Source: a virus
Strand: one strand, 5' to 3'
DNA length: 64,000 bases
IMG/VR virus record: IMGVR_UViG_3300035698_022389
Span: 1-64,000 of that record
This document shows positions 1 through 42,706 of this stretch, in pieces (positions within the stretch are counted from its first letter, which is position 1; the number at the start of each line of letters is the position of its first letter). The translations under genes were made by a program, and so were the position numbers. Below the pieces are notes generated by a model. That model had not been told where the DNA came from and made no database searches. It saw only the letters and a program-made list of their open reading frames with translations.

Positions 1-1673
1 TTGAGTTTGTTAGAGATGTTTGCATTCTTTTGGGTATTGGGGTTTTCAGTATTAGAGGTCACACTAGAATATCTAATATTACAGAACGTCCTTTCACTAT
101 GTATAAGCTGAAATTTTTACGAAGTACCCTTGATGAGGATTTCTTTGTTATTCCTCATCATAAGAAGGCTTTCCTGAAATTGGGAGGAAGTAATGTAAAA
201 CGTAATGCCATGAATTGGACTGTGATCTCGGTTGAACCGACAGCTCGTGTTGAGAAAGTTTTTTGTGCTACCGTGGATAAACATCGGGATTTTGTTTTGG
301 GTGGTAATCTGGCTACGGGAAATTGTGACTTCTTTGGTCCTTATACGGCCAATAACACGATGTCTTACGCTAGGTTCCAGACCCCCAAGGACATTGACAA
401 GTATGGCAGATATTCAGAAGACCCAACGGCCAGAGCTTCTCTGAGAGTTACGTTCAGGTCGTGTATTGCCAAAGGTCTTCGTGGTGCTGGTAACATTGTT
501 ATTATTATGGATGAAGCAGCTCACTTTACAGACGGTGGTCAGTCCTCGGCAGCCAGTGTGTACGATGCTGTTACTCCTTCGGCAGCCACATTCTCCCCAA
601 AAGATCAGAATGACAAGAAAATCCCTATAGGTGATGTTGAAGGCCGTGTAATTTCAATTAGTTCCCCACTTGGTAAACAGGGGCACTTTTACGAACTTTA
701 CCAGCTTGGGTACACTGGAACAACAGCAGCTACAAATATGCTGTGCATCCAGGCTCCAACCTGGGAAGTCAACCCAACTCTTCCTCTTTCCGAGTATGAG
801 AAATTCTATTATAAAGATCCCGTAGTGTTCTTTACAGAGTTTGGTGGCCACTTTACAGACCGTACTCGTGGTTGGTTAGAACGGGAAGAAGATTTGCTGG
901 CATGTGTGGATAACTCATTACGACCTTTAACTCAGGCACCGGCCAGACGCCCTCACTTCATCGGAATTGATGTTGGGTTAGTAAAAGATGGCTCGGCTGT
1001 AGCTATTGGTCATACGGAGCGTGTTAATGGCAGTGAAAAAATTGTGGTTGATTTAGTTGATCAGATAAAGGCAGGTGAAGGAAAATATAAAGATGTTAGT
1101 AGATTAGAATTTGATCAGGTGGCTGACTGGGTAGCAAAATTATCTAAGAAATTCTATATTGTGGATGGTATATTTGATCAATGGGCAGGGATTCCATTTG
1201 AACAGGCACTTATAAAACGAGGGTTACGTCAAATTAAAACTGTTCATATGACTAGACAGATTAACTCAGACATCTTTAAAAACTTTAAAGATGCCATGTG
1301 GGAGAAGTGGTTAATGTTGTATGATTGGCCTATTCCACAAGATCCCGGAGAAGGCATACATTGCCCCTACATTGCACAACTGTTGGAAATGCAAGCCCAG
1401 TATCTCTCTAAGTACATAACACTCGTCCAGGCTCCCCAGGTGGCTGGGAAACATGATGATATGGTAGATGCTTTAGTTAGAATGGTTTGGACGGCTAGTC
1501 ATAGCCTTGGTACATCTAAAATTATCTCAGGTGTTCGAAATCCAAATGCCATTGGTGGGGCAACAGGTCATAGGGCCTCTCGGCGCGCTCGGCTGAATGC
1601 TCGAAGGACAGGTTCCAGTCCCGATCGGCAACCTTCACGAGTTAATAGGGGTTGTGTAAGGGGTCGTAGATGA
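1..1673 (+). CDS. Terminase large subunit (TerL), 5'-partial, interrupted by an intein
   Basis: This is the ATPase-nuclease motor that packages DNA through the portal. The reading frame is open at the left edge (first full codon at base 3), so the gene starts upstream. The first ~107 codons are the end of an intein; the C-extein starts with Cys at 324. The extein shows the Walker B motif IVIIMDEAAHF (catalytic Glu near base 513) and the RNase H-fold nuclease domain, with FIGIDVG (first acidic residue) and KHDDMVDAL (last acidic pair). The Walker A part must lie upstream. The Arg-rich C-terminus ends in ATGA, overlapping the next gene. TerL followed within 0.6 kb by the portal is the usual phage order. 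The family call is firm; the N-extein is not visible. Confidence 0.93.
   Translation, partial: EFVRDVCILLGIGVFSIRGHTRISNITERPFTMYKLKFLRSTLDEDFFVIPHHKKAFLKLGGSNVKRNAMNWTVISVEPTARVEKVFCATVDKHRDFVLGGNLATGNCDFFGPYTANNTMSYARFQTPKDIDKYGRYSEDPTARASLRVTFRSCIAKGLRGAGNIVIIMDEAAHFTDGGQSSAASVYDAVTPSAATFSPKDQNDKKIPIGDVEGRVISISSPLGKQGHFYELYQLGYTGTTAATNMLCIQAPTWEVNPTLPLSEYEKFYYKDPVVFFTEFGGHFTDRTRGWLEREEDLLACVDNSLRPLTQAPARRPHFIGIDVGLVKDGSAVAIGHTERVNGSEKIVVDLVDQIKAGEGKYKDVSRLEFDQVADWVAKLSKKFYIVDGIFDQWAGIPFEQALIKRGLRQIKTVHMTRQINSDIFKNFKDAMWEKWLMLYDWPIPQDPGEGIHCPYIAQLLEMQAQYLSKYITLVQAPQVAGKHDDMVDALVRMVWTASHSLGTSKIISGVRNPNAIGGATGHRASRRARLNARRTGSSPDRQPSRVNRGCVRGRR
3..323 (+). other. C-terminal part of an intein in TerL
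   Basis: The residues before Cys-324 have intein block F/G character: V-F-C-A-T-V-D-K-H-R-D-F-V-L, then GNLATGN immediately before the +1 Cys. The upstream segment (LLGIGVFSIRG...YKLKFLRS) resembles the second half of a LAGLIDADG homing endonuclease. The residue before the terminal Asn is Gly instead of the common His, which is tolerated in some inteins. The N-terminal Hint half lies outside the window, so I cannot tell whether this intein is contiguous or split. Confidence 0.85.
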
Positions 1674-21448: not shown

Positions 21449-21478
21449 TTGACACCTTTGAGATTGTTCTGTTATACA
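21449..21478 (+). promoter_or_regulatory. Candidate sigma70-type promoter for the homing endonuclease/methyltransferase gene
   Basis: TTGACA (21449-21454) with TATACA (21473-21478) at an 18-base spacing, directly after the capsid terminator and ~55 bases before the ATG. A private promoter would let this inserted gene be expressed separately from the capsid operon. Confidence 0.6.
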
Positions 21479-21532
21479 TGTGTTACGAGGTTTTGTTTTT
21501 TTGTGTTTACATGTGTTGTGAAAAGAGGGTGT

Positions 21533-24100
21533 ATGGGACAATTAACTCCTAAGTTGTTAAATATTTTGTATAGTCAAGAAGGTCGGATTGAATCTTCTAT
21601 TGCAAAAGAATTTGGTCTTAGTCAGGTACAGGTAGGTAGGTTACGTAAAAAATGGGGAATACCTACAATGACTAAAGGTGAGAGAATTTCTTTATCTCTG
21701 CCTAGTGTGACTACTCAACAATGGGAATTGTTTATAGGTTCTTTGTTGGGTGATGGTAGTATGAGTCAAACCAGTGAGCTTTCTGCTCGTTTCATGGAGG
21801 GTCACAGTTTAAAACAAGAAGAGTATTTAAACTGGAAACATCATATCTTAAAGCCCTTTTCAAAGAAGATTTTTAATATTCAGAAAAGAGAGAATGGGAA
21901 AATACATAGAGGGAAAGGTTTTGTAACCAGCTCCTGTACCAAATTACGTATTTTTTATGATATGTTTTATCCAGCACCTTTACGGAAAAAGATTTTCCCT
22001 AGGAATTTACCTGCATTGATGACTCCGTTGGTTTTAGCTATTTGGTATATGGATGATGGGAGTATTACTTCAAAGGGTAAACCTAGGATTCATTTTGGGT
22101 TGGATAAGGTGAGTGAGGACAGGGCAGTAGCTGCTCTAAAGAAGTTAGGTTTGAAGCCTTGTCTTTATGGGATAGAAGGCGGTGACAGAACTTTTCATTT
22201 TCCAGGGCAAGCTATGAAATTTAAATCCTTGGTAGAACCTTATATACAGGAAGTTGTTTGTTTACAGTATAAGATACCTACAGAAACTAAACGGCAACAA
22301 GGGGACCGGCAAGCTAAGGCATTAACCCCTGAAAGGGCTTTGGTTTTGTATGATGCTGGTATGTCTATAACTATGATTGCTAATGTGTATGGTGTTGGTA
22401 CGTCTACTGTACGTAGACGTATAGGGTCAGAGAATTTACGTTTTTCTGGCCCTGTAGTTTTGAAACATTCTTTATCTGAAGCTAATATGATATTAGAATG
22501 TTTTAGCCCCGAGGATTGGTCGACTTTTTCTGAGGTTGAACAAGATCAGTTAGTCGCAGATATTATGAAAATACTACGAAACACCCCTTTCCCAATAGAA
22601 CCTTCTAAAGAATATCCTATGACTGTTGTAAGTAAATTAAGTAACACTTTTTTTTATCTGGAAAATGGGGATGTGATAAGACCTAAGAATCATATAGGGA
22701 CCTCATTCTGTGCTTCTCTTTTCCCTAATCGGTATAGGGCTTCTTCAAAAGGTGGCCCTACTGCTTTTGAGTCGTGGTATGACGATAAACAATTAGAGTG
22801 GGCTGTTCGTTTTCAGTTGAGATCCGGTGATCCGGTATTACCTTATAGAGTGTTAAAATCAATTACTATGAGATGTCGTACACCAACCGTCTTTAGACCT
22901 TCTGTGGCTGCTTTTATGTGTAGGAGATATCTTCCTAAAGGTGGTGTGTGGTGGGACCCTTGTGCGGGGTATGGCGGGCGTTTATTAGGGGCTTCTTCAG
23001 TGCCTGGGGTCCAGTATATAGGGACGGATGTTGATCCTGAAACTGTGAAGGGTAATTTGAAATTAAAATCGGTATTAGGGTATGTTAATTCTGAGGTTAT
23101 AGAAAAACCTGCTGAGAAGTTTGACCCGCCTCCGTGTGATATGGTATTTACGTCCCCTCCTTATTTTGATAGGGAGAGGTACTCCACAGGAGAAGATCAA
23201 TCATGGGTTAAGTATAATACTTTTTCTAAGTGGTGTAGTGAGTTTTTAGTCCCTATTATGAGGACGGCTTTTGAAAAATTAAATGAGGGGGGTGTTTTTG
23301 CTTTAAATGTTGCAGATATACGTAAAAATGGAGAAGTGGTTCCGATAGAGAAGGCCGTAAAAACCTTAGCAGTGGAGGTTGGTTTTGAGTTACTTGAGAC
23401 TTTAAAAATGCCATTAGCTGCTATGAACAGAAAAAACCCTACGGAACCTATTTTTGTTTTTAAGAAGTCTTTGAATCTGGGGGGTTCTAAAGATAGTTAT
23501 TATATAGATAGAGGGTGTAAGGGATTAGAAAAACCTGAAGGGAAAGGGCTTTCGGATCTTGGGGAAAAGCCTGATGAACCTGAACAAGTGTTGGGTTTTT
23601 TGCCCAGTCTGGGTATATGTTCCGTTTGTGGGAAAACTTTCCCTACTATGGAGCTAAGGAATGGCAACTGCCCTTCTTGTCTTGTTAAGGGTGTAGAGAT
23701 TGCTGTTTGTAAGGGTTGTGGTAAAGAGTTTGTTAGGAAGAACAAGCTTCATGAGTTTCATTCTGCTAATTGCAGGGCCCGTTATGATAGGAAAGAATGG
23801 AGAAAGACACATCCTGTGAAGGAAATACGTATTTTCACTTGTAAGGTTTGCGGGGTTAGTTTTGAAACGAGTCTACTTGGAAATTTCACTATATGCAATA
23901 CATGTAAAGAAAATAAGGATATTGCAAATCGAACCAGGATATGCAAATATCGTGAATGCCAGATGTCCTTTGTTGATACTTCTTCAAAAAATGGTATGAA
24001 CTATTGTTGTGAGGAGCATCGTCGAAGGGAGAAACTGTTTAGGTCTGGGAAACTATCGTCTGTTTCTCAATTCAGAAAGCCCGATCCGATCAATCCTTAA
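21533..24100 (+). CDS. LAGLIDADG endonuclease - HTH - DNA methyltransferase - zinc ribbon fusion (855 aa)
   Basis: An N-terminal HTH-like segment (SIAKEFGLSQVQVGRLRKKWG) is followed by a two-motif LAGLIDADG homing endonuclease: FIGSLLGDGSM (Asp74) and LAIWYMDDGSI (Asp174/175). A second HTH (SITMIANVYGVGTSTVRRRIG) follows. Then comes an SAM-dependent DNA methyltransferase with motif I WDPCAGYGGRLLG (Asp475) and motif IV FTSPPYFDRE (Ser541), the amino-methylating (N4-C/N6-A) type. The C-terminus carries several CxxC zinc-binding clusters (CSVCGKTF, CKGCGKEF, CKVCGVSF, CNTC). Start at ATG 21533 behind AGAGGG; the gene is flanked by terminators. It looks like a mobile gene inserted downstream of the capsid gene. 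Such a fusion could cut unmodified and protect modified DNA, which is inference. Confidence 0.85.
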   Translation: MGQLTPKLLNILYSQEGRIESSIAKEFGLSQVQVGRLRKKWGIPTMTKGERISLSLPSVTTQQWELFIGSLLGDGSMSQTSELSARFMEGHSLKQEEYLNWKHHILKPFSKKIFNIQKRENGKIHRGKGFVTSSCTKLRIFYDMFYPAPLRKKIFPRNLPALMTPLVLAIWYMDDGSITSKGKPRIHFGLDKVSEDRAVAALKKLGLKPCLYGIEGGDRTFHFPGQAMKFKSLVEPYIQEVVCLQYKIPTETKRQQGDRQAKALTPERALVLYDAGMSITMIANVYGVGTSTVRRRIGSENLRFSGPVVLKHSLSEANMILECFSPEDWSTFSEVEQDQLVADIMKILRNTPFPIEPSKEYPMTVVSKLSNTFFYLENGDVIRPKNHIGTSFCASLFPNRYRASSKGGPTAFESWYDDKQLEWAVRFQLRSGDPVLPYRVLKSITMRCRTPTVFRPSVAAFMCRRYLPKGGVWWDPCAGYGGRLLGASSVPGVQYIGTDVDPETVKGNLKLKSVLGYVNSEVIEKPAEKFDPPPCDMVFTSPPYFDRERYSTGEDQSWVKYNTFSKWCSEFLVPIMRTAFEKLNEGGVFALNVADIRKNGEVVPIEKAVKTLAVEVGFELLETLKMPLAAMNRKNPTEPIFVFKKSLNLGGSKDSYYIDRGCKGLEKPEGKGLSDLGEKPDEPEQVLGFLPSLGICSVCGKTFPTMELRNGNCPSCLVKGVEIAVCKGCGKEFVRKNKLHEFHSANCRARYDRKEWRKTHPVKEIRIFTCKVCGVSFETSLLGNFTICNTCKENKDIANRTRICKYRECQMSFVDTSSKNGMNYCCEEHRRREKLFRSGKLSSVSQFRKPDPINP

Positions 24101-33334: not shown

Positions 33335-33835
33335 ATGGCAGTAGCCTTTATTCCGGGAGAAACAATATCAAGAGGAGACTTAGACATCTTCTTGCAGAAT
33401 AGTTTAGGGAATCCAGCAAATGCTGCAGAGATTTACTACACTCTTTACTATGTAGCTCCAGGTCCTCCTGAATCCGAAGTACAGGTTGGCCAACCTCAAC
33501 GAATTCCCGTAAATCCTGCCGTCGGGGAGTATTACGCTTCTCTTATGGTTCCCCAAGGTTCAACCCCAGGAACATATAGAATTCGATGGACATTCAGAGA
33601 ACTTATCAATTCACCCCAACAGCAAGTCGTTCAGGAATTTGCTATCGTGACAGCAGCTGGCTCCTTATTGGTTCCTGGATATGATCAGGCTCAGACAGCA
33701 ATGATGAGAAGCCTTCGGATGCTTTTAAGAGATCAGTGTGTTGGTGGTGAAGTTACAGTAGAAGTGGATGCCGATGGTGAATTGATGGTTGTGTCCATGA
33801 AAGATTTATGGGAGGCTTTGAAAGATGAAGTCTAA
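33335..33835 (+). CDS. Split-intein gene, part 1: N-extein of a virion protein plus IntN1
   Basis: Residues 1-134 are a beta-rich N-extein that ends SLRMLLRDQ. At Cys135 (33737) an intein block A begins, CVGGEVTVEVDADGELMVV, followed by SMKDLWEALKDEV and a stop: 32 residues of an intein N-fragment. The matching C-fragment starts the next gene. Fused in register, DQ joins CPDKFYHFRPPEYEG and gives a continuous structural protein. The IntN ends between blocks A and B, so this is the 'atypically split' type known from phage metagenomes. Trans-splicing is inferred, but residues on both sides are intact. Confidence 0.85.
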   Translation: MAVAFIPGETISRGDLDIFLQNSLGNPANAAEIYYTLYYVAPGPPESEVQVGQPQRIPVNPAVGEYYASLMVPQGSTPGTYRIRWTFRELINSPQQQVVQEFAIVTAAGSLLVPGYDQAQTAMMRSLRMLLRDQCVGGEVTVEVDADGELMVVSMKDLWEALKDEV

Positions 33836-33914
33836 CCAGCCACATCAAAAATTATTACCTTTATTAAAGAAATATGAAGTTTTTCCATATGGACAGAAAA
33901 AGATAGGTTGAAAA

Positions 33915-34679
33915 ATGTTAAGTGTGCATGATAAACTGAGAAATGCTTTTCGTGTAGGGAAGTTAAAAACGAGATCAGTATCACCTGAAGGAAAAATGGA
34001 ATGGAAATGTGTAACAGATGTCCATAGGGCTGAGGTTCCTTGGGAAGAAATTCGGAGGGTAGATACTAAATATGGTCATGCTTATTTAACTAAAGGGCAT
34101 AGAGTTTTTGTATCTCCTGTAATAAAAAAGAATGCTGGGGATTTAGTAGAGAATGATAGTGTTCTTGGCATAGATGCTTCAGATACTGTTTTTTATCCTA
34201 GTTTAACATCTATAGCTGTTAAACCCTCTCGTAAATATATGTATGATTTAACTGTTGCTGACTGGCATAATTTTGTTTTGTTTGATTCACGGATGGTTAT
34301 CAGTAATTGCCCTGACAAATTTTATCATTTCAGGCCACCTGAGTACGAAGGGGATATCGGACAGTATAATCGAATATTTGGTCAGATATGGGAAGACGAG
34401 GAACTTTTGGAGTACCTGCTGAGGTCTTTGGATTGGTTCAACATGTTCCCCCCACTAACTCAGAAGATCAATACTTTGACCATTCTGCTTCAAGCCATGC
34501 CCGCATGGAGGACAGCCATCCTGTGGGGTGCTATTACTCATGCTTGTTTTGCTTTATCGATAAATTGGGTCGCGGACGAATTTTCTGTTCGTGGTGATCA
34601 GGAGGTAACTGTAGTAACTAAATCAGGTAAAGAGATTTCTTTATCGATTCAAGAATTGTATGAGATATGCAAGAACTAA
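33915..34679 (+). CDS. Split-intein gene, part 2: IntC1 - middle extein - IntN2
   Basis: Residues 1-131 are an intein C-fragment: block B YLTKGHRVF (TxxH), block F MYDLTVADWHNFVL, and ISN before Cys132 (34308). Residues 132-223 are a 92-residue middle extein (CPDKFYHFRPPEYEG...INWVADEF) with hydrophobic, membrane-like helices. At Ser224 (34584) a second intein N-fragment begins: SVRGDQEVTVVTKSGKEISL, then SIQELYEICKN and a stop, 31 residues. So this one polypeptide carries an intein half at each end and could only be matured by two trans-splicing events. Confidence 0.87.
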   Translation: MLSVHDKLRNAFRVGKLKTRSVSPEGKMEWKCVTDVHRAEVPWEEIRRVDTKYGHAYLTKGHRVFVSPVIKKNAGDLVENDSVLGIDASDTVFYPSLTSIAVKPSRKYMYDLTVADWHNFVLFDSRMVISNCPDKFYHFRPPEYEGDIGQYNRIFGQIWEDEELLEYLLRSLDWFNMFPPLTQKINTLTILLQAMPAWRTAILWGAITHACFALSINWVADEFSVRGDQEVTVVTKSGKEISLSIQELYEICKN

Positions 34680-34696
34680 TTAGTAAACGACAATTT

Positions 34697-34719
34697 ATGG
34701 TAGGCAAAAGGGACTTGAA
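34697..34719 (+). mobile_element. Solo left end of a TnpB-type (IS200/IS605-like) element
   Basis: The 19 bases TAGGCAAAAGGGACTTGAA (34701-34719) are identical to the left end of the TnpB-derived element at 47366-47384, and both follow TTAT-G. No right end or tnpB sequence is present here, so it looks like a scar left after loss of an element between parts 2 and 3 of the split gene. Confidence 0.7.
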
Positions 34720-34767
34720 AAAGACTCCAGATATTTGTGTAGCTAGGGTGCAGGAGGTATTATTACA

Positions 34768-35451
34768 ATGTTGAGAATAAAAGAACAATGTGAAATCAGA
34801 GAATCTTTTAAGGAGGGTACTTTACAGGTAAAAAGTGTTGACCCTGTTACAAAAGGTGTGGTATTACAGCCTATTATTGAGGTGTTAAAACATAAAACCC
34901 CTGATAAAGTTATGTTAGAAGTGGTTACCGATTGTGGGACGGTGGTTACAACACAAGATCATTCTTTGTTTAAATCTGATATGGTATCTGTTGAAGTTTC
35001 CAATTTAAAAGAAGATGATGAAATAGCCTGGGTGGATGGTATTTATAAACCCATGAAAGTCAGAAAGATCAATGTAGTCCCTAATGAAGTTTTTACTTAT
35101 GATTTAAGTGTCCCTCCTTTTCAGAATTTTACACTCTCTAATGGAGCTGTAGCACATAATTCATATAGCATAGGCGGGGTATCCTTGGATATTGAGAAAT
35201 CCTCAAAATACGAATCCTTGAAACAAAATGCTGAAGGTCAATTAGAGAAAGCAGCTGAAGCAAAACAACGAACTGTTAAATTTATCCGAGGGTTACAGCA
35301 GCCCAGATTCGGCCTCGGAGTAAGGAGCAGTTTTGGCCCACATGTAGGTAACGGCATACTTAGCCCTCGGAGTTTTATGGCTTGGGCTGTTGCTGTTTTA
35401 ACACCTGCATTAGTTTTTGTTAGTTCTGCCAACAGTCTAGGTTTGGTCTAG
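34768..35451 (+). CDS. Split-intein gene, part 3: IntC2 plus C-extein
   Basis: Residues 1-131 are an intein C-fragment: TTQDHSLF (TxxH block B), FTYDLSVPPFQNFTL (block F) and AVAHN before Ser132 (35161), the canonical HN-S junction. The remaining 96 residues are the C-extein (SYSIGGVSLDIEKSSKYESLKQNAEGQLEKAAEAKQRT...), with a coiled-coil-like stretch and a C-terminal hydrophobic helix. AGGAGG at 34752-34757 serves the ATG. Joined to parts 1 and 2 the product would be 322 residues. IntC1 and IntC2 have exactly the same length. Confidence 0.87.
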   Translation: MLRIKEQCEIRESFKEGTLQVKSVDPVTKGVVLQPIIEVLKHKTPDKVMLEVVTDCGTVVTTQDHSLFKSDMVSVEVSNLKEDDEIAWVDGIYKPMKVRKINVVPNEVFTYDLSVPPFQNFTLSNGAVAHNSYSIGGVSLDIEKSSKYESLKQNAEGQLEKAAEAKQRTVKFIRGLQQPRFGLGVRSSFGPHVGNGILSPRSFMAWAVAVLTPALVFVSSANSLGLV

Positions 35452-35968: not shown

Positions 35969-36451
35969 ATGAAAAAACAAACATCTTTTCAAAAATTCAG
36001 TCCTGAAGGATTAAAGCAGGCATTAATTAAATTAGCTTCTGATAATCCTGAACTAAGGAAGCATTTAGTACCCCTTCTGAAAGAAGCTGGGTATAAACGT
36101 AGACCTGAGTTTACAATGGAGATTTCAAGGGGGGGCGCTGAATTTGGGTTTTATTACCCCTACGTGAAAACCAACATGGAAGAACAAAAAGAGAAATGCT
36201 GGGAAGAATTTAAGGCTATTGTAAAAATCATTTTTAAGAAATATAAGGGTAGGAAACTATATTTTAATTCTAATTTATCTGATATAATAGTTTTACCAAA
36301 AGAGTTTATGTTACATAAAAACAAAAAACCTAGTATTAGTGTCCCTGATGTGTTTAAGCATAAGAGTTTAAACATTGAAAAAGAAGTAAAACAGATTGTT
36401 AATCGCTTTGGTTGGGTTTTAGATATTGGTTGGGTCGCATATTATCATTAA
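35969..36451 (+). CDS. Accessory protein with N-terminal RKHLVPLLK module (160 aa)
   Basis: Residues ~13-40 carry the island's shared module (LIKLASDNPELRKHLVPLLKEA). The rest is an alpha/beta domain of unknown family (FTMEISRGGAEFGFYYPYVKT...). The DNA of the module (36032-36089) is identical over 58 bases to that in the gene at 37465, pointing to recent recombination. The LKE-A sequence at the module end matches the T4-type prohead protease consensus (L/I-x-E); cleavage is speculative. Confidence 0.65.
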   Translation: MKKQTSFQKFSPEGLKQALIKLASDNPELRKHLVPLLKEAGYKRRPEFTMEISRGGAEFGFYYPYVKTNMEEQKEKCWEEFKAIVKIIFKKYKGRKLYFNSNLSDIIVLPKEFMLHKNKKPSISVPDVFKHKSLNIEKEVKQIVNRFGWVLDIGWVAYYH

Positions 36452-36499
36452 TCCAAGTCTGCAAATAAAGTTGGCCAAGGAAAGTATATGGTGTTTTAA

Positions 36500-37177
36500 A
36501 TGAAAAACTTTATCAGACATGCAACTTTGAGGGCATCCTCTAAAAAAGTTATTGATGCTTTTATCTTAAAGAAACCCCTTGAAAACCAATCTATGACTTC
36601 AACGGGGAAAGAACTCTCAAGTATTTCGATGGGTGGCCAACTACTTGCCAAATGGGTAGGCCGAAAAATAGCATTTGTAGGATTAGAGTCTTCTCGGACT
36701 GTATCCTCTATAGTTAGGTATCTTACGAAAAAGGCTGGTCACTCAATGGTGACTTTCGATTATGACCGAAAGGGTTTTAATCGGTCTATTCATTTTCAAA
36801 CGGGTGGGGATGTAAACGGTCCTCAGTATGATGGTTATGTTTATGCCAGGTTGCCTTGGCGGGATAACCAGTTTGTGGGCCAGTTAACTTGGACTGAGTA
36901 TCAGGATGAGTACAGTGTCCGAATGATTGAGGTTTTACCTGAATACCGAAGGACTGGTATTGGTAAAGCTCTGATGGAGTATTTTATGAAAGATCAAAAG
37001 ATTACTAAATCTGATATTAATACAGGGATGAGAACTCCTGATGGTTCTAAATTTTGGGATAAGTTATCCAAAGGGATGGAACACCCTGAGAATTTAAGAG
37101 CTAAAGTAATTAAGCTGGCTCACGAGAACCCTAAGTTACGAAAGCATTTAGTTCCTATTTTGAAAGAGGCTGAATAA
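36500..37177 (+). CDS. GNAT-type acetyltransferase with C-terminal RKHLVPLLK module (225 aa)
   Basis: Residues ~120-180 form a GNAT core: a beta strand SVRMIEVLPEYR followed by RRTGIGKALMEYF, the acetyl-CoA pyrophosphate-binding loop (R-x-x-G-x-G). The extreme C-terminus is the shared module VIKLAHENPKLRKHLVPILKEAE, here ending the protein instead of starting it. The substrate is unknown; it could modify a host protein or tRNA. The stop overlaps the next start (TAATG). Confidence 0.75.
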   Translation: MKNFIRHATLRASSKKVIDAFILKKPLENQSMTSTGKELSSISMGGQLLAKWVGRKIAFVGLESSRTVSSIVRYLTKKAGHSMVTFDYDRKGFNRSIHFQTGGDVNGPQYDGYVYARLPWRDNQFVGQLTWTEYQDEYSVRMIEVLPEYRRTGIGKALMEYFMKDQKITKSDINTGMRTPDGSKFWDKLSKGMEHPENLRAKVIKLAHENPKLRKHLVPILKEAE

Positions 37178-37437
37178 TGGGAACTGGTAATAATAACAAC
37201 GATATAACATTTTTTGATTCTGGCCCAAACAAAACGAAATACATGCTAGCTACAGTAAATTCTACTATAAATAGCGATAAAGATACAAACAAGTATCCAC
37301 CGACTGAAAGACTAATAACGACTGAAACTATTGAAGTATATATTGGGGTTGGTGATCGTGCAGAATTTGTTACACATATTTTTGATGCAAAGAAGGCTGA
37401 AAACCAAAGGTTAAATAGAAAACTGAGTTCTTATTAG
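37177..37437 (+). CDS. Small accessory protein (86 aa)
   Basis: A polar, Asn/Thr/Lys-rich short protein without the module or a named motif. It overlaps the acetyltransferase stop by one base and is followed directly by the next gene, so it belongs to the same operon. Its coding status is supported mainly by the tight packing. Confidence 0.5.
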   Translation: MGTGNNNNDITFFDSGPNKTKYMLATVNSTINSDKDTNKYPPTERLITTETIEVYIGVGDRAEFVTHIFDAKKAENQRLNRKLSSY

Positions 37438-37464
37438 GTGGAAAAGGGAAGGAAACCTTTCAAA

Positions 37465-38763
37465 ATGTCTAAAGATTTATCAAAGTTAGTAAAGAAGTTA
37501 GCTTCTGATAATCCTGAACTAAGGAAGCATTTAGTACCCCTTCTGAAAGAAGCTGTTGTACCTATTAAACAAATGGCAAAAAAGGCTTCAATTAAAACAG
37601 TGGAGCAGTTTGGATTATTTAAAGTTTATGGGCCTTATACAGATATAGCTCCTTTGATTAAGTCTTTGAAGCAGTGGGGTTTTAGATATGAGCCTGTTCA
37701 TAAAGTTTGGGAGATGCCTTTAGAAAAGGTAACCCCAGCTTTACGTAAAAGATTGGATAAATTAATTGCAAAACAAACTCCTTGGGAGGATATTTTGCAA
37801 CAGGCTGTAACAAACGGTTGGGTTTTAAGTTTTGTTTATAACGAGGAATTGATTCAAGATGCTCGCAAATTAAAAGGGACTTGGGATAAAAAACATAAAT
37901 ATTGGGTATTCCCGACAGCAAGGGCTTATAAGGAGATGTCTGATATTGTTAAAGATAAAGAAGACATTTTGAATGAGATACTAAAAAAGAAAGAGGGTTA
38001 TCTGCAACAAAAAAAGGAGGCCCTGCGTAAGGGTTGGTTTGTACAGTTTGATTATGATACAGATTTGATAAAAGAAGCCAAATCTTTAAATGGCTTATGG
38101 GACACTAATCAGAAGGTATGGGTATTTCTTGATATTTCTGATTATAAGAAAATGAAACGTGCCATACATGAGGATGATGATAAAGATGTCCCCTCAAATG
38201 CTATTGTACGCAGTCAATCTAGTAAGAACAAGACTCCTCGTTTTCAAAAAGGAGATTCCTTTAGAGACCCTGAAAATCATAAGGTTTTAACAGTTTTCAA
38301 CATAATGTCCAAATACTATGCTGAGGATGGAAGGTCCTTTGGTTTGGGTATGGATAGAGGTTGGGCACATTCGTTTTATTGTAAACTGGCCGGAAAAAAA
38401 GGGGTGGCTGAAGTAGAATTACAAGAATTTAAAGAATTGTCTCGGCAGCAAATGGTTAAGGCATACCAGAATATGGTTAAGATGTTTAAGAAAAAAGGGA
38501 AATTCCCCAAACCTGGCTCAAAATTGATAACTTTACGTGGGAAAAAACATATGGAATCCGATACCTCCTCTATTCTTTATGGTGGCGGGCATTGGTTTGT
38601 GGTTGAGAGTGGTAAAATATGGTATGTAGAGAACAACGGGGCAGATGGTGATAATTGGGCTCATAACAATATTGCCACATCTGGTGCGGGGGCATTAGGG
38701 TGGTATCTCCCTTATTCTGAGGGGTTAGCTGAGGAGCTTAAAATTATGGATAAGAAACTTTGA
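37465..38763 (+). CDS. Module protein with three HARP-like repeats (432 aa)
   Basis: N-terminal module KLASDNPELRKHLVPLLKEA (residues ~12-31). Then three repeats of a HARP-like pattern (hydrophobic-Y-x(n)-LI-x-LKxxG-x(n)-W): residues ~50-86 (IKSLKQWGFRYEPVHKVWEMP), ~118-150 (FVYNEELIQDARKLKGTWDK) and ~190-221 (FDYDTDLIKEAKSLNGLWDT). HARP-type domains occur in annealing helicases and nucleases and bind DNA. The C-terminal ~180 residues are a separate unknown domain. ATG 37465 is preferred; GTG 37438 is possible. Confidence 0.65.
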   Translation: MSKDLSKLVKKLASDNPELRKHLVPLLKEAVVPIKQMAKKASIKTVEQFGLFKVYGPYTDIAPLIKSLKQWGFRYEPVHKVWEMPLEKVTPALRKRLDKLIAKQTPWEDILQQAVTNGWVLSFVYNEELIQDARKLKGTWDKKHKYWVFPTARAYKEMSDIVKDKEDILNEILKKKEGYLQQKKEALRKGWFVQFDYDTDLIKEAKSLNGLWDTNQKVWVFLDISDYKKMKRAIHEDDDKDVPSNAIVRSQSSKNKTPRFQKGDSFRDPENHKVLTVFNIMSKYYAEDGRSFGLGMDRGWAHSFYCKLAGKKGVAEVELQEFKELSRQQMVKAYQNMVKMFKKKGKFPKPGSKLITLRGKKHMESDTSSILYGGGHWFVVESGKIWYVENNGADGDNWAHNNIATSGAGALGWYLPYSEGLAEELKIMDKKL

Positions 38764-39140
38764 TGTGGTGGGTTTATGTAATTCAATCTCAAGAAGTCCG
38801 GACAGGTAAAAAAGGAAATATTTTACCAGGGTTTCATTATGTAGGGTGTACTACTGATCCGGCTCGAAGGTTGCGTGAGCACAACGGTTTGTTGTCTGGG
38901 GGCGGGAAATATACCAGCAAGCACCGTCCTTGGGTGGCCCGAAGTCTTTATGGTCCTTATTTTGGCAGGTCTGAAGCAATGAAGGCTGAGTATGCTTTAA
39001 AGCATGGGAAACGCAGTACAGCTCGAACACGGTGGTCTGTAGAAGATTCCCCTTGGTGTCGAGGATTAGGTCCGAACGATCCGTGGGTGGTCAACGGTAT
39101 TTTTCCTATAGAACTCTGTAAGAAGGAGGAGTTTTTATAA
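38763..39140 (+). CDS. GIY-YIG nuclease domain protein (125 aa)
   Basis: MWWVYVIQS...GFHYVGCTTDPARRLREHN is the GIY-YIG pattern (with VYV...HYVG), followed by the conserved Arg in RRLREHN and a Glu in AMKAEYALKHGKR. These small single-domain enzymes resemble SLX1/UPF0213-type nucleases. The start overlaps the preceding stop (TGATG). It lacks the shared module. It could be a homing endonuclease that helps spread the island, or a repair/defence nuclease. Confidence 0.82.
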   Translation: MWWVYVIQSQEVRTGKKGNILPGFHYVGCTTDPARRLREHNGLLSGGGKYTSKHRPWVARSLYGPYFGRSEAMKAEYALKHGKRSTARTRWSVEDSPWCRGLGPNDPWVVNGIFPIELCKKEEFL

Positions 39141-39180
39141 GGTGTTGGCTGAAATAAAAAGAAAGCAAGGAGAAGTTAAA

Positions 39181-39705
39181 ATGAGTAATTTACGTTCAGA
39201 ATTAGTGAAGCTAGCCAGTGACAACCCTGGGTTTCGAAAACACCTGGTTCCTATTCTGAAAGGGGAGCCTAGAAGTATGAAAAGGGCAAATGTTATGAAA
39301 AAAGAAGCTGGTGGTATGGCTAGCGCCTTAGATTTAGTGTTTTTGATCATAAGTCAGGAATCCTCTTCCAAAGGTCAGAAGATGTTTATGGATACTAAGA
39401 AAGCTCTTGAGTCTGATGAGCAGTCCAAGAAATTGATGTCCGAGGTGTTAAGGGGGGTGGCAAGATCCTTAATACTTGACCAAAAGGAAAACACGGCTTT
39501 AAACTACATCCGTATGGCAATGAAGAATGTTAGATCCGCCGGATCTGCCAGGAATTCTATTTTCAAGGCTGCTCATGCTCTTGGTATCAAACTTCCAAGT
39601 TCTATATTTGCATCTAATGACTCTGAATTACAGGAACAATTACAGAAGCTGGCCAATGAGAACCCAGAAGGTATCAGGAAGCATTTGGTTCCTCTTTTAA
39701 GATAA
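39181..39705 (+). CDS. Accessory protein with modules at both ends (174 aa)
   Basis: Residues ~4-27 (LVKLASDNPGFRKHLVPILK) and the last ~25 residues (QKLANENPEGIRKHLVPLL) are two copies of the shared module, flanking a helical middle (DLVFLIISQESSSKGQKMFMDTKKALE...). ATG 39181 is chosen because AAGGAG lies 8 bases upstream. The upstream stretch 39142-39201 is nearly identical to 40144-40203 inside the next gene, which reveals recombination. Function unknown. Confidence 0.65.
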   Translation: MSNLRSELVKLASDNPGFRKHLVPILKGEPRSMKRANVMKKEAGGMASALDLVFLIISQESSSKGQKMFMDTKKALESDEQSKKLMSEVLRGVARSLILDQKENTALNYIRMAMKNVRSAGSARNSIFKAAHALGIKLPSSIFASNDSELQEQLQKLANENPEGIRKHLVPLLR

Positions 39706-39792
39706 CTTGGACTTTGATTTAGGTGGTTAGAAGATTACTTAAGTGAAATTGAGTTGGAAATTATAATACTTTCTATGTGAAAGGGTGGTGGA

Positions 39793-40581
39793 ATGAGTGA
39801 TACAAAATATTTACAGTTATTTCCAGTAATAGATAAAGCAGTAAAGAAATATTTATCTAAGTCCAAATATATAAAACGAATTAGGCTCAAAGGCAAAGAT
39901 AAACATTCTATTCTATATAGTGTGGATTGGGCATTTGAACCTCATAAAGATGCTCCAATCCCAGAATACTTTGCGGTAACTAGCACAGGGAGAACTCTTT
40001 ATTTGGAGTTGAGTGTCCCAGGGTTCTTTAGTTATTCATCACCAACTGAAATGTCTATGGATTTAGAGATTGCTCTTATCAACCCTGTTAAGGTTGAACA
40101 GAAGATTAAAGAGATTGCAAGAGCTATTGACCCTATAGCTTCCAAGGTGTTGACCGAAATAAAAAGAAAGCAAGGAGAAGTTAAAACGAGTAATTTACGT
40201 TCAAAGTTAGTGAAGTTATCCAATGAGAATCCTGATGGTATCAGGAAACATTTGGTTCCATTGCTGAAACAGGCTTTGGCTGGTCCAGATAAGAGTGGTC
40301 GGAATTGGAAAGAAATCAATGATTCCAAAGGTCATCGGTGGATGTGGTCTGGTAAACCTGGTCCTGTATTTGGGGTTTACGAATTTGAAGGCCCAGGAAT
40401 CCCTCTATACCGTCTTCAGACAATTTTAGACGATGGGGGTATGCTGAAATGGAAACGTCAGGTGAAAGACCCGAAAATGGCTTTTGCTCAAGCAGCCTCC
40501 GTTTGGAAAATGTTCCATGCTGATGGGACTATGGGCGGCAATCTTTTAATGGGTTGGAAAAGGATGGCTTCTAATAGATGA
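39793..40581 (+). CDS. Fused accessory protein with internal RKHLVPLLK module (262 aa)
   Basis: Residues 1-~116 are an alpha/beta domain (YLQLFPVIDKAVKKYLSKSK...). At ~118-160 comes VLTEIKRKQGEVKTSNLRS plus the module LVKLSNENPDGIRKHLVPLLK. Then follows a C-terminal domain (GHRWMWSGKPGPVFGVYEFEGPG). The middle DNA contains the AAGGAG site and start region of a former separate gene, with the ATG changed to ACG, so this is a gene fusion (compare 39142-39201). Function unknown. Confidence 0.65.
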   Translation: MSDTKYLQLFPVIDKAVKKYLSKSKYIKRIRLKGKDKHSILYSVDWAFEPHKDAPIPEYFAVTSTGRTLYLELSVPGFFSYSSPTEMSMDLEIALINPVKVEQKIKEIARAIDPIASKVLTEIKRKQGEVKTSNLRSKLVKLSNENPDGIRKHLVPLLKQALAGPDKSGRNWKEINDSKGHRWMWSGKPGPVFGVYEFEGPGIPLYRLQTILDDGGMLKWKRQVKDPKMAFAQAASVWKMFHADGTMGGNLLMGWKRMASNR

Positions 40582-40622
40582 ACGCTATTTAGAATTATTT
40601 CTAGTTATTTAAGGAAAATACA

Positions 40623-41519
40623 ATGAGTAATGGAATTAAAGACCTCAAAATATTGTTGGATATTAATGCTACATATCCTAAATTTGGTTCCCCTGAGTAT
40701 GAGCAGATGGTTACAAAGGCTGTTCTGCTCAAGAAGCCCTTGTTAGTAGCTTATACAAAGTTTGTTCAAAAAGAGGCATCTAAAGACAGGTCTGCCGATC
40801 CTGCAATGGTGTTCTTAGGTTCTATGGCTATGAATATTAATAGGGATTTTACAAAGCTGATTACCTCCACATCCAAGAACTATCCTGATTGGATATCTTT
40901 GTACAATGGTTTGGTTCCTAGAGGTAGAAAAATAGGTGGTAAAGCATATAAGTCAGCTTTTGCTAAAGGATTTGATGCAGCACATGGTCGAGGGACATTT
41001 GTTAGGGCTGAATTAAACAACAAGAAACAGAGGGCTTCTAGTAATTTACGTTCAAAATTAAGCCGTGATGAGAAAATACCAAGATATACAGAGTTATTAT
41101 CAGCCAGGATTTCCAAATTGGCTTCGGACTATCCTGAGTTACGAAAGCATTTGGTCCCTTTATTGAAACAGGGTTCCATTTTCAAATATGAGTCTTCTAC
41201 ACCTATAGACAAAAGGGTTCTGGTTAGAAACCTTAATAAAGTCCTTGGGAATGTTTCTAGAGGATTCTTCAATGATGAGCATTGGAGAGGGCCTAAGAGA
41301 GTATGGGATGCTTTGAATAAGATAGGTATAACTTGGGAGCAGACAAAGAACTTCTATGATGGGAAAATGCCCCCACAATCAAAGACTTGGAAGTTTGAAG
41401 TTGAGTTCACCTCTAAAAAAGGTAGGGCAGCTAAATTATATGGTCACATGGTAGCATCTGGTGCTGGTTCTGTAAATGACCCCTTGAGCCGTTATGATAT
41501 TGTCGTTTACGTAGGATAA
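40623..41519 (+). CDS. Accessory protein with internal RKHLVPLLK module (298 aa)
   Basis: The N-terminal ~135 residues are helical (GIKDLKILLDINATYPKFGSPEY...). A relic SSNLRSKLS sequence, like the start of other module genes, precedes the module ARISKLASDYPELRKHLVPLLKQG (~160-183). The C-terminal domain contains PIDKRVLVRNLNKVLG, which has a degenerate copy at 42070-42110. Likely another fusion of two former genes. Function unknown. Confidence 0.65.
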   Translation: MSNGIKDLKILLDINATYPKFGSPEYEQMVTKAVLLKKPLLVAYTKFVQKEASKDRSADPAMVFLGSMAMNINRDFTKLITSTSKNYPDWISLYNGLVPRGRKIGGKAYKSAFAKGFDAAHGRGTFVRAELNNKKQRASSNLRSKLSRDEKIPRYTELLSARISKLASDYPELRKHLVPLLKQGSIFKYESSTPIDKRVLVRNLNKVLGNVSRGFFNDEHWRGPKRVWDALNKIGITWEQTKNFYDGKMPPQSKTWKFEVEFTSKKGRAAKLYGHMVASGAGSVNDPLSRYDIVVYVG

Positions 41520-41538
41520 AATTTAAGGATAAATTAAG

Positions 41539-41991
41539 ATGAGTACTTTACGAGATAAAGTAATAAAACTTGCCCACAAGAATCCTGAACTTAGGAAACA
41601 CCTGGTTCCGTTACTAAAGAGTGCTGGTGGTGGGATATATCAAATTTTCTTTAATATATTTAAGGAAGCCTTTAAAGAATCTTGTACTAAACTATACACT
41701 CAATTTTACCGTGATTATCGTTGGGAGGATATAGAAGGAGTGTCTTCAAGTATCCAACCAGGACTTTGGCAAGTTGTTTCTAAATATAGTCCTATGGTTG
41801 CAGTTTCTTATCATGTGACTGGTACGAAACTGACTATTACTTGTAGTCTTTTAAATCTTCATCATTCTCTATCTAAAATGGAAAAGGTTATTCCTTTGGG
41901 GGAATTTCTAGCCCGTGATATGACTGAAAAAGACATGCAAATCCTTATTATGAAATTCATTATTAGTTGTGCTAAGAGGGTTTGGAGATAA
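41539..41991 (+). CDS. Accessory protein with N-terminal RKHLVPLLK module (150 aa)
   Basis: The module is at residues ~3-28 (LRDKVIKLAHKNPELRKHLVPLLK). The rest is a mixed alpha/beta domain (FNIFKEAFKESCTKLYTQFYRDYRWED...) of unknown family. An AAGGA site precedes the ATG. Its end overlaps the start of a decayed module-gene remnant in another frame. Confidence 0.62.
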   Translation: MSTLRDKVIKLAHKNPELRKHLVPLLKSAGGGIYQIFFNIFKEAFKESCTKLYTQFYRDYRWEDIEGVSSSIQPGLWQVVSKYSPMVAVSYHVTGTKLTITCSLLNLHHSLSKMEKVIPLGEFLARDMTEKDMQILIMKFIISCAKRVWR

Positions 41992-42139
41992 GAATCCTAA
42001 ACTCCGACCTCATCTGGTTCCATTATTGAAAATAGCAGCTATTTTCAATAATGATTTCTCTGAGCTAATCGATAAAAGGATTCTGGTCAGGAAACTTAAT
42101 AAGGAGAATCTTATTATACAGGATGTAAGTTATAAATGA
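41987..42139 (+). pseudogene. Remnant of a module gene
   Basis: Reading from 41987 gives DKNPKLRPHLVPLLKIAA, then ELIDKRILVRKLNKENL, and a TGA at 42137. The first part is the shared module and the second matches PIDKRVLVRNLNKVLG of the gene at 40623. There is no start codon or ribosome site, so it is a truncated duplicate. Confidence 0.75.
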
Positions 42140-42175
42140 CCACTAAAATGGGATTAACCTCAAGGAGAAATTACG

Positions 42176-42706
42176 ATGAGTGATTTACGTTTAAATTTAG
42201 TGAAGTTAGCCAATGATAACCCTGATGGTATCAGGAAGCATTTGGTTCCTCTATTAAAACAGGCTAAAACCTATGACTTTGAGGAAGGGGACCCCATAGG
42301 AACTAATGAGAAAATGTGGGCTGAATATAAACCTAGTCTTAAACTTCAAGTACAGAAGTTGGAGCAGCTCGGTCTGAGATACATTAAAGTGCAACGTCAT
42401 GGTATGTTGGCTTTGTCATTCAAATATAAGAAATGGACAATTGAGATATCAATCCTTCGGTTATTTGAGTTGAGAAACGTAAAAGGTCTGGGTGCTTTTG
42501 CCAGTCGTTTCGGTAAATTAGAACAGTTAATCGAAGACGAGATCCAAAATATCAAGCTGGCTGGTGGCCCACGTCAATATTCCCCGTTCTTCTCAACCTA
42601 TTATAGTAAGGTGAAAGCCATCATGGGAGGGGCAAAGACCAAAGGTTTGGCTATATCTTTTGTTACAGAAGTTATCAAAGAGATGGGTGTTCGGATTTGG
42701 ACATAA
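42176..42706 (+). CDS. Accessory protein with N-terminal RKHLVPLLK module (176 aa)
   Basis: Module LVKLANDNPDGIRKHLVPLLKQA at residues ~6-29, then an alpha/beta domain (MWAEYKPSLKLQVQKLEQLGLRYIKVQ...). AAGGAG precedes the ATG. It is the last gene of the accessory island; the intergenic region behind it contains a hairpin. Function unknown. Confidence 0.65.
   Translation: MSDLRLNLVKLANDNPDGIRKHLVPLLKQAKTYDFEEGDPIGTNEKMWAEYKPSLKLQVQKLEQLGLRYIKVQRHGMLALSFKYKKWTIEISILRLFELRNVKGLGAFASRFGKLEQLIEDEIQNIKLAGGPRQYSPFFSTYYSKVKAIMGGAKTKGLAISFVTEVIKEMGVRIWT

What the first reader, a model, noticed from the sequence alone, without database searches (positions are those of the whole stretch)
33335..35451. 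One virion protein in three genes joined by two consecutive split inteins
Three adjacent + strand genes read as N-extein+IntN1, IntC1+middle extein+IntN2, IntC2+C-extein. IntN1 (32 aa, Cys1 at 33737) and IntN2 (31 aa, Ser1 at 34584) hold only block A. IntC1 and IntC2 are each exactly 131 aa, with TxxH block B, block F and terminal Asn followed by Cys (34308) and Ser (35161). Precise joining gives a continuous 322-residue protein (134+92+96). 'Atypically split' inteins with short IntN are known from phage metagenomes (AceL-TerL, VidaL types). A middle polypeptide carrying intein halves at both ends, so that two trans-splicing events are needed for one structural protein, is to my knowledge not a described arrangement. 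Different nucleophiles (Cys versus Ser) would help keep the two pairings orthogonal.
Basis: partly seen in the sequence, partly recalled or inferred. Interest (0 to 1): 0.95.

Follow-up and report, generated by a model that had tools for sequence, protein, structure and literature searches.

The report
Phage protein stitched from three genes
A large bacterial virus encodes one of its probable particle proteins in three separate pieces that two different self-splicing linkers are predicted to join, and related viruses preserve nearly every step of how selfish DNA broke the gene apart, which makes this apparently the first natural protein known to need two such joins.

Summary
Comparison supports the interpretation. 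About 50 non-redundant relatives, including Tunturiibacter phage Tunturi_5 ('head-tail connector protein'), carry the same protein as one uninterrupted ORF with both predicted junctions exactly closed. Across 92 non-redundant alleles, site 1 is occupied in 23, site 2 in 24, both in 8; in 6 of those 8, window included, both are split. The +1 residue tracks occupancy: Asn becomes Cys/Ser at site 1, Asp becomes Ser/Thr at site 2. Most occupied relatives still carry a free-standing endonuclease gene between the intein halves: TnsA-like at site 1, Vsr-like at site 2. The window kept only the ends of each. So this is a doubly 'fractured gene' whose endonucleases are gone and whose atypically split inteins remain. 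Splicing and pair orthogonality are inferred, not shown. I found no earlier report of a natural protein needing two trans-splicing events, but the key paper (Dassa 2009) could not be read. Verdict: real; new variant of a known kind.

The parts
33335..33736 (+). N-extein E1 (134 aa), predicted Ig-like beta domain plus the helix before site 1
   Evidence: tblastn to unsplit homologues ends exactly at the junction; AF2 model of the unsplit L008 homologue
33737..33832 (+). IntN1 (32 aa, Cys1, block A); stop codon 33833-33835
   Evidence: 91% identical to IntN1 of L005, dN/dS 0.07
33825..33911 (+). Remnant of the site-1 endonuclease gene: 28-codon mini-ORF with the HEN1 start; it runs, out of frame, through DNA of the HEN1 end. 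Stop is 3 nt before the IntC1 ATG
   Evidence: DNA alignment to the full HEN1 of L005
33915..34307 (+). IntC1 (131 aa, block B TxGH, block F D/H, ends S-N)
   Evidence: dN/dS 0.27 against L005
34308..34583 (+). Middle extein E2 (92 aa), +1 Cys replacing conserved Asn
34584..34676 (+). IntN2 (31 aa, Ser1, block A); stop codon 34677-34679
   Evidence: dN/dS 0.07 against L005
34667..34774 (+). Remnant of the site-2 endonuclease gene: 35-codon mini-ORF with both ends of HEN2 and the likely ribosome-binding site of IntC2; its stop overlaps the IntC2 start
34768..35160 (+). IntC2 (131 aa, block B TxxH, ends H-N)
35161..35448 (+). C-extein E3 (96 aa), +1 Ser replacing conserved Asp; stop codon 35449-35451

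Best explanation
One conserved phage gene, probably for a head-tail connector or other virion protein, has two homing sites in conserved stretches. Each site was invaded by its own atypically split intein (about 29-38 aa IntN, roughly 124-140 aa IntC) that carried a free-standing endonuclease gene between its halves: a TnsA-like PD-(D/E)XK nuclease at site 1, a Vsr-like nuclease at site 2. That cut the gene into three cistrons. In the window both endonuclease genes were later lost by internal deletion. Their two ends survive as 28- and 35-codon mini-ORFs that keep the start region of the downstream cistron. Three polypeptides are made, the two halves of each intein associate, and two trans-splicing reactions (Cys1/Cys+1 and Ser1/Ser+1) yield the 322-residue protein. 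Shown: anatomy, exact closure in unsplit homologues, +1 covariation, site-specific intein clades, endonuclease remnants, purifying selection on three of the four intein halves. Inferred: splicing, selectivity of pairing, homing, translational coupling, virion role.
For: Unsplit homologues join at exactly the predicted residues; L008 and L009, within the same 100/100 clade as the window, are empty at both sites. +1 residue by occupancy: site 1 occupied 23/23 C/S versus empty 69/69 not C/S/T (Fisher 4e-22); site 2 occupied 24/24 S/T versus empty 63/68 not C/S/T (1e-17). Six independent double-split genomes. Full endonuclease ORFs between the halves in relatives, their ends in the window gaps. 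Site 1 and site 2 inteins are reciprocally monophyletic, 100/100. dN/dS 0.07-0.27 for IntN1, IntC1 and IntN2 (IntC2 synonymous changes saturated, pN/pS 0.50). Catalytic residues kept. The split point falls in the only low-confidence stretch of the folded domain. Every relative of either intein family recovered in IMG/VR lies in this gene at these sites.
Against: No biochemical or proteomic evidence of splicing. IntC1 lacks the penultimate His and IntC2 the block F His, so splicing could be slow. Four alleles empty at site 2 carry Ser at +1. The connector name comes from one annotated homologue at 27% identity; PDB fold hits to the extein were weak. Homing activity of the endonucleases is untested. 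Alleles share ancestry, so the Fisher values overstate the number of independent events.
Confidence: 0.91

Rival explanations
1. The inteins are decaying relics: the three fragments assemble without covalent joining, as reported for the Aeh1 NrdA pieces, or the gene is a pseudogene.
For: The endonucleases are gone; IntC2 is the fastest-changing part (47% identity to L005); a functional gene in pieces without splicing is known for Aeh1 nrdA (described in PMC3653736).
Against: dN/dS 0.07-0.27 on IntN1, IntC1 and IntN2; all nucleophiles, block B His and terminal Asn kept; +1 nucleophile present in all 47 occupied sites and nearly absent from empty ones.
Confidence: 0.06
2. Assembly or sequencing error: contiguous inteins broken by false frameshifts or a chimeric contig.
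For: A single metagenomic record of 132,879 bases.
Against: Each gap holds the degraded ends of a gene that is intact in L005; five other genomes have both sites split.
Confidence: 0.01
3. The inteins splice as proposed, but the split state is itself selected, for example to delay or gate production of the structural protein (this adds a function to the best explanation rather than replacing it).
For: Split state persists after endonuclease loss in several lineages (W, L015, L125, L111); the mini-ORFs keep the IntC start regions.
Against: Refusion to a contiguous intein also happens (L031), so splitting is not essential; retention follows simply from where deletions end.
Confidence: 0.05

Closest known systems
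'Fractured genes' (Dassa et al. 2009, NAR 37:2560, doi 10.1093/nar/gkp095; known to me from memory and from citations, full text not held)
   Same: Phage gene broken by a split intein with a free-standing endonuclease gene between the halves; a Vsr-like endonuclease is one of the partners
   Different: Here two such breaks in one gene, so a middle polypeptide carries intein halves at both ends; host gene is a probable structural gene rather than DNA synthesis or repair; a TnsA-like nuclease at one site; both nucleases deleted in the window
[quoted passage not shown] PolB16 OarG, PMC10189870, IntN 15 aa and IntC 168 aa)
   Same: Short IntN holding block A only, long IntC
   Different: Different sequence families, two in series in one protein, different host gene
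Jumbo phage MIJ3 split PolB intein with an HNH endonuclease gene (PMC6892783)
   Same: Single fractured gene in a jumbo phage
   Different: One split site, polymerase gene, different endonuclease family, typical split position
Engineered three-segment tandem protein trans-splicing (PMC12707363)
   Same: Three segments joined by two orthogonal split inteins, so the middle segment has an intein half at each end
   Different: Man-made; here natural
[quoted passage not shown]
   Same: Two intein insertions in one phage gene
   Different: Not described there as two split inteins forming a three-piece gene

Membership tests
Class 1 split intein | Block A nucleophile, block B TxxH, block F, terminal Asn, +1 Cys/Ser/Thr | tested here: met
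   deviations: penultimate Ser in IntC1, Gln for the block F His in IntC2
Class 1 split intein | HINT fold | tested here: met
   AF2 of the contiguous relative L042, pLDDT 96.6; Foldseek top hits are inteins
Class 1 split intein | Protein trans-splicing activity | not testable with these tools
   Needs coexpression and mass spectrometry
Atypically split intein | Split close to the N end, with block B in the IntC half | tested here: met
   IntN 32 and 31 aa; TxxH lies in IntC
Fractured gene | Split intein with a free-standing endonuclease gene between the halves | tested here: not met
   Window has only remnants of both endonucleases; met in relatives L003, L005, L101, L109 and others. The window is therefore a derivative, not a full member
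Fractured gene | Endonuclease related to Vsr (found in about half of the loci of that study, from memory) | tested here: met
   In relatives only: site-2 endonucleases hit Vsr, MTES_1575, DUF559 and PHROG homing endonuclease; site-1 ones hit TnsA-like PF08722 instead
Fractured gene | Homing into intein-free alleles | tested here: inconclusive
   Site-1 occupancy needs at least 6 changes on the extein tree and empty alleles coexist; cleavage untested
Head-tail connector protein | Homology to a connector | tested here: inconclusive
   Tunturi_5 annotated connector, 27% identity over 87%; Foldseek to a portal-adaptor complex at E 5e-3 only

The most novel reading that the evidence does not exclude
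This is the first natural protein known to be assembled from three gene products by two orthogonal split inteins, found in at least six distinct large-phage genomes.
Probability: 0.65. Interest if true: 0.85.

Novelty: new variant of a known kind. Interest (0 to 1): 0.78.

Why it matters
Three-piece assembly by two split inteins has, as far as I could find, been made only by engineers. This locus offers a candidate natural orthogonal pair with short (31-32 aa) N fragments. The allele series makes an open question testable, namely how split inteins arise and are lost: it shows split inteins with endonuclease genes still between the halves, endonuclease deletions that leave the split in place, and at least one clear return from split to contiguous intein. 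It also suggests that an intein can settle where no usable +1 residue was present, bringing Cys or Ser with it and altering the host protein.

Tried and rejected
Single contiguous intein broken by a frameshift: rejected, gap DNA is endonuclease remnant. Exteins as separate proteins: rejected by contiguous homologues. Pfam and PHROG searches of the extein: no hit. Bacterial and archaeal genomes: no relative. PDB sequence search with the unsplit extein: nothing meaningful; fold search weak, many Ig-like hits at E above 1e-3; viral fold library gives Bacillus phage G gp165 and minor tail proteins. Window neighbours against annotated phages: only an unannotated huge phage record or nothing. Nucleophile difference as the source of orthogonality: rejected as necessary, since L101, L109 and L111 have Ser+1 at both sites.

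Full report
Observation. The three + strand ORFs and every coordinate of the finding are correct. IntN1 (32 aa, Cys1 at 33737) ends gene 1. Gene 2 is IntC1 (131 aa), E2 (92 aa, from 34308) and IntN2 (31 aa, Ser1 at 34584). Gene 3 is IntC2 (131 aa) and E3 (96 aa, from 35161). Joining gives 322 residues. Both joined inteins match Pfam Intein_splicing (intein 1 is under the curated cut-off). The family profile hits only inteins, intein-like domains and their host proteins in the PDB. A contiguous relative folds with pLDDT 96.6, and Foldseek returns inteins at the top. The only lower-confidence stretch of that model, within residues 31-40, is where the window and its relatives are split.

Test by homologues. 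tblastn with the spliced product finds Tunturiibacter phage Tunturi_5, whose 'head-tail connector protein' covers residues 5-284 in one ORF, and the 485 kb huge phage LR745208. Scans of IMG/VR brought in many more relatives. In most, E1, E2 and E3 are contiguous and the predicted splice points coincide exactly with the closed junctions. L008 and L009, within the same 100/100 clade as the window and L005, are empty at both sites. The unsplit protein is predicted to have an N-terminal beta domain and a helical C-terminal part (mean pLDDT 74, so a rough model); site 1 follows helix 118-134 and site 2 follows helix 199-225, before a disordered loop. Both sites lie in conserved stretches (97th and 92nd percentile of ten-column windows).

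Occupancy and the +1 residue. Among 92 non-redundant alleles, 53 are empty at both sites, 15 have site 1 only, 16 site 2 only and 8 both (the later scans were made with inteins, so these counts do not estimate frequency). In the extein-based scan alone the counts were 45, 4, 6 and 4, a weak tendency to co-occur (p = 0.02). Six of the eight are split at both sites: the window, L005, L015, L101, L109 and L111. L031 and L106 are split at site 1 and contiguous at site 2. Occupied site 1 always has Cys or Ser at +1; empty site 1 never has Cys, Ser or Thr (64 of 69 Asn). Occupied site 2 has Ser or Thr; empty site 2 mostly Asp (58 of 68), with four Ser and one Thr exceptions. The simplest reading is that the inteins brought a nucleophile that the host protein lacked. 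Shared ancestry means the Fisher values (4e-22, 1e-17) overstate independence, but site-1 occupancy alone needs at least six changes on the extein tree.

Origin of the split. In L005 each pair of halves encloses an intact gene: 307 aa with a TnsA-like N-terminal PD-(D/E)XK domain at site 1 (E 0.001, under the Pfam cut-off; the L003 and L031 homologues pass it), 316 aa with MTES_1575, Vsr and PHROG homing-endonuclease matches at site 2. The other relatives that were scanned have the same site-specific pairing of endonuclease families. Intein trees separate site 1 from site 2 with 100/100 support, and scans with either intein family return only this gene at these sites. In the window the gaps are 79 and 88 nt and align to the two ends of those endonuclease genes. 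The remnants form mini-ORFs of 28 and 35 codons that start inside the IntN stop region and end 3 nt before, or overlapping, the IntC start, and the site-2 remnant keeps an AGGAGG start signal. Similar mini-ORFs occur in L015 (33 codons) and L125 (47), each fusing the two ends of its endonuclease in frame; L111 site 2 keeps a 41-codon 3' remnant. In L031 site 2 the deletion instead fused the halves in frame: the contiguous intein still contains the endonuclease end and the former IntC start codons (GGAGCGTATGATGG), and it lies within a clade of otherwise split inteins. At least four split/contiguous changes are forced on the intein tree. So, by inference, loss of the endonuclease either keeps the downstream start signal, and the gene stays in pieces, or fuses the halves in frame, and the intein becomes contiguous.

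Function. IntN1, IntC1 and IntN2 show dN/dS of 0.07-0.27 against L005; IntC2 is too diverged for a dN/dS (synonymous sites saturated, pN/pS 0.50). Nucleophiles, block B His and terminal Asn are kept. I infer that both inteins splice in trans. Pair discrimination is plausible: IntC1 and IntC2 are 28% identical, IntN1 and IntN2 41%, and site-1 IntN fragments carry a net charge of -6 to -9 against -5 to +1 at site 2. A wrong pairing of IntN1 with IntC2 would skip E2, which gives a clear test.

Comparison with what is known. The parts are known kinds: atypically split inteins (PMC10189870) and genes fractured by a split intein with an endonuclease between the halves (Dassa 2009, from memory, cited in PMC10448857 and PMC3653736; MIJ3 PolB, PMC6892783). 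Engineered three-segment splicing exists (PMC12707363). I found no report of a natural protein needing two trans-splicing events in the literature searches made, but the library lacks Dassa 2009 and most subscription journals, so priority is uncertain. By the strict definition the window is a derivative of a fractured gene, since its endonucleases are gone.

Limits. Splicing, orthogonality, homing and translational coupling are untested. The virion role rests on one distant annotated homologue and weak fold similarity.

Noticed in passing
window 1-1673: The large terminase gene at the start of the record begins with what looks like another intein C half (...GNLATGN before CDFFGPY; Pfam Intein_splicing E 0.01; terminase by PHROG). 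The record edge cuts it, so split or contiguous cannot be told.
   Followed up: partly
window 36000-42300: About ten places carry a near-identical peptide, KLASDNPELRKHLVPLLK or a variant, in otherwise different proteins, often near an end. It looks like a shared signal, for example for virion packaging or processing.
   Followed up: no
window 21449-24100: 883-aa ORF combining a LAGLIDADG endonuclease domain, helix-turn-helix matches and a DNA methylase domain.
   Followed up: no
L122, L123, L133, L141: Alleles empty at site 2 but with Ser at +1; all four are occupied at site 1. Scar of a precise intein loss or a pre-existing Ser, unresolved.
   Followed up: partly
L003 6630-8063: Further endonuclease-like ORF directly after the connector gene of huge phage LR745208 (DUF7487 and ROS/MUCR matches), suggesting an endonuclease hot spot.
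   Followed up: no
L003 4655-5698, L005 4701-5624, L031 4742-5617: PHROG 218, labelled 'head closure', is the best PHROG match of the site-1 TnsA-like endonucleases; automatic annotation may mislabel such nucleases as head closure proteins.
   Followed up: no
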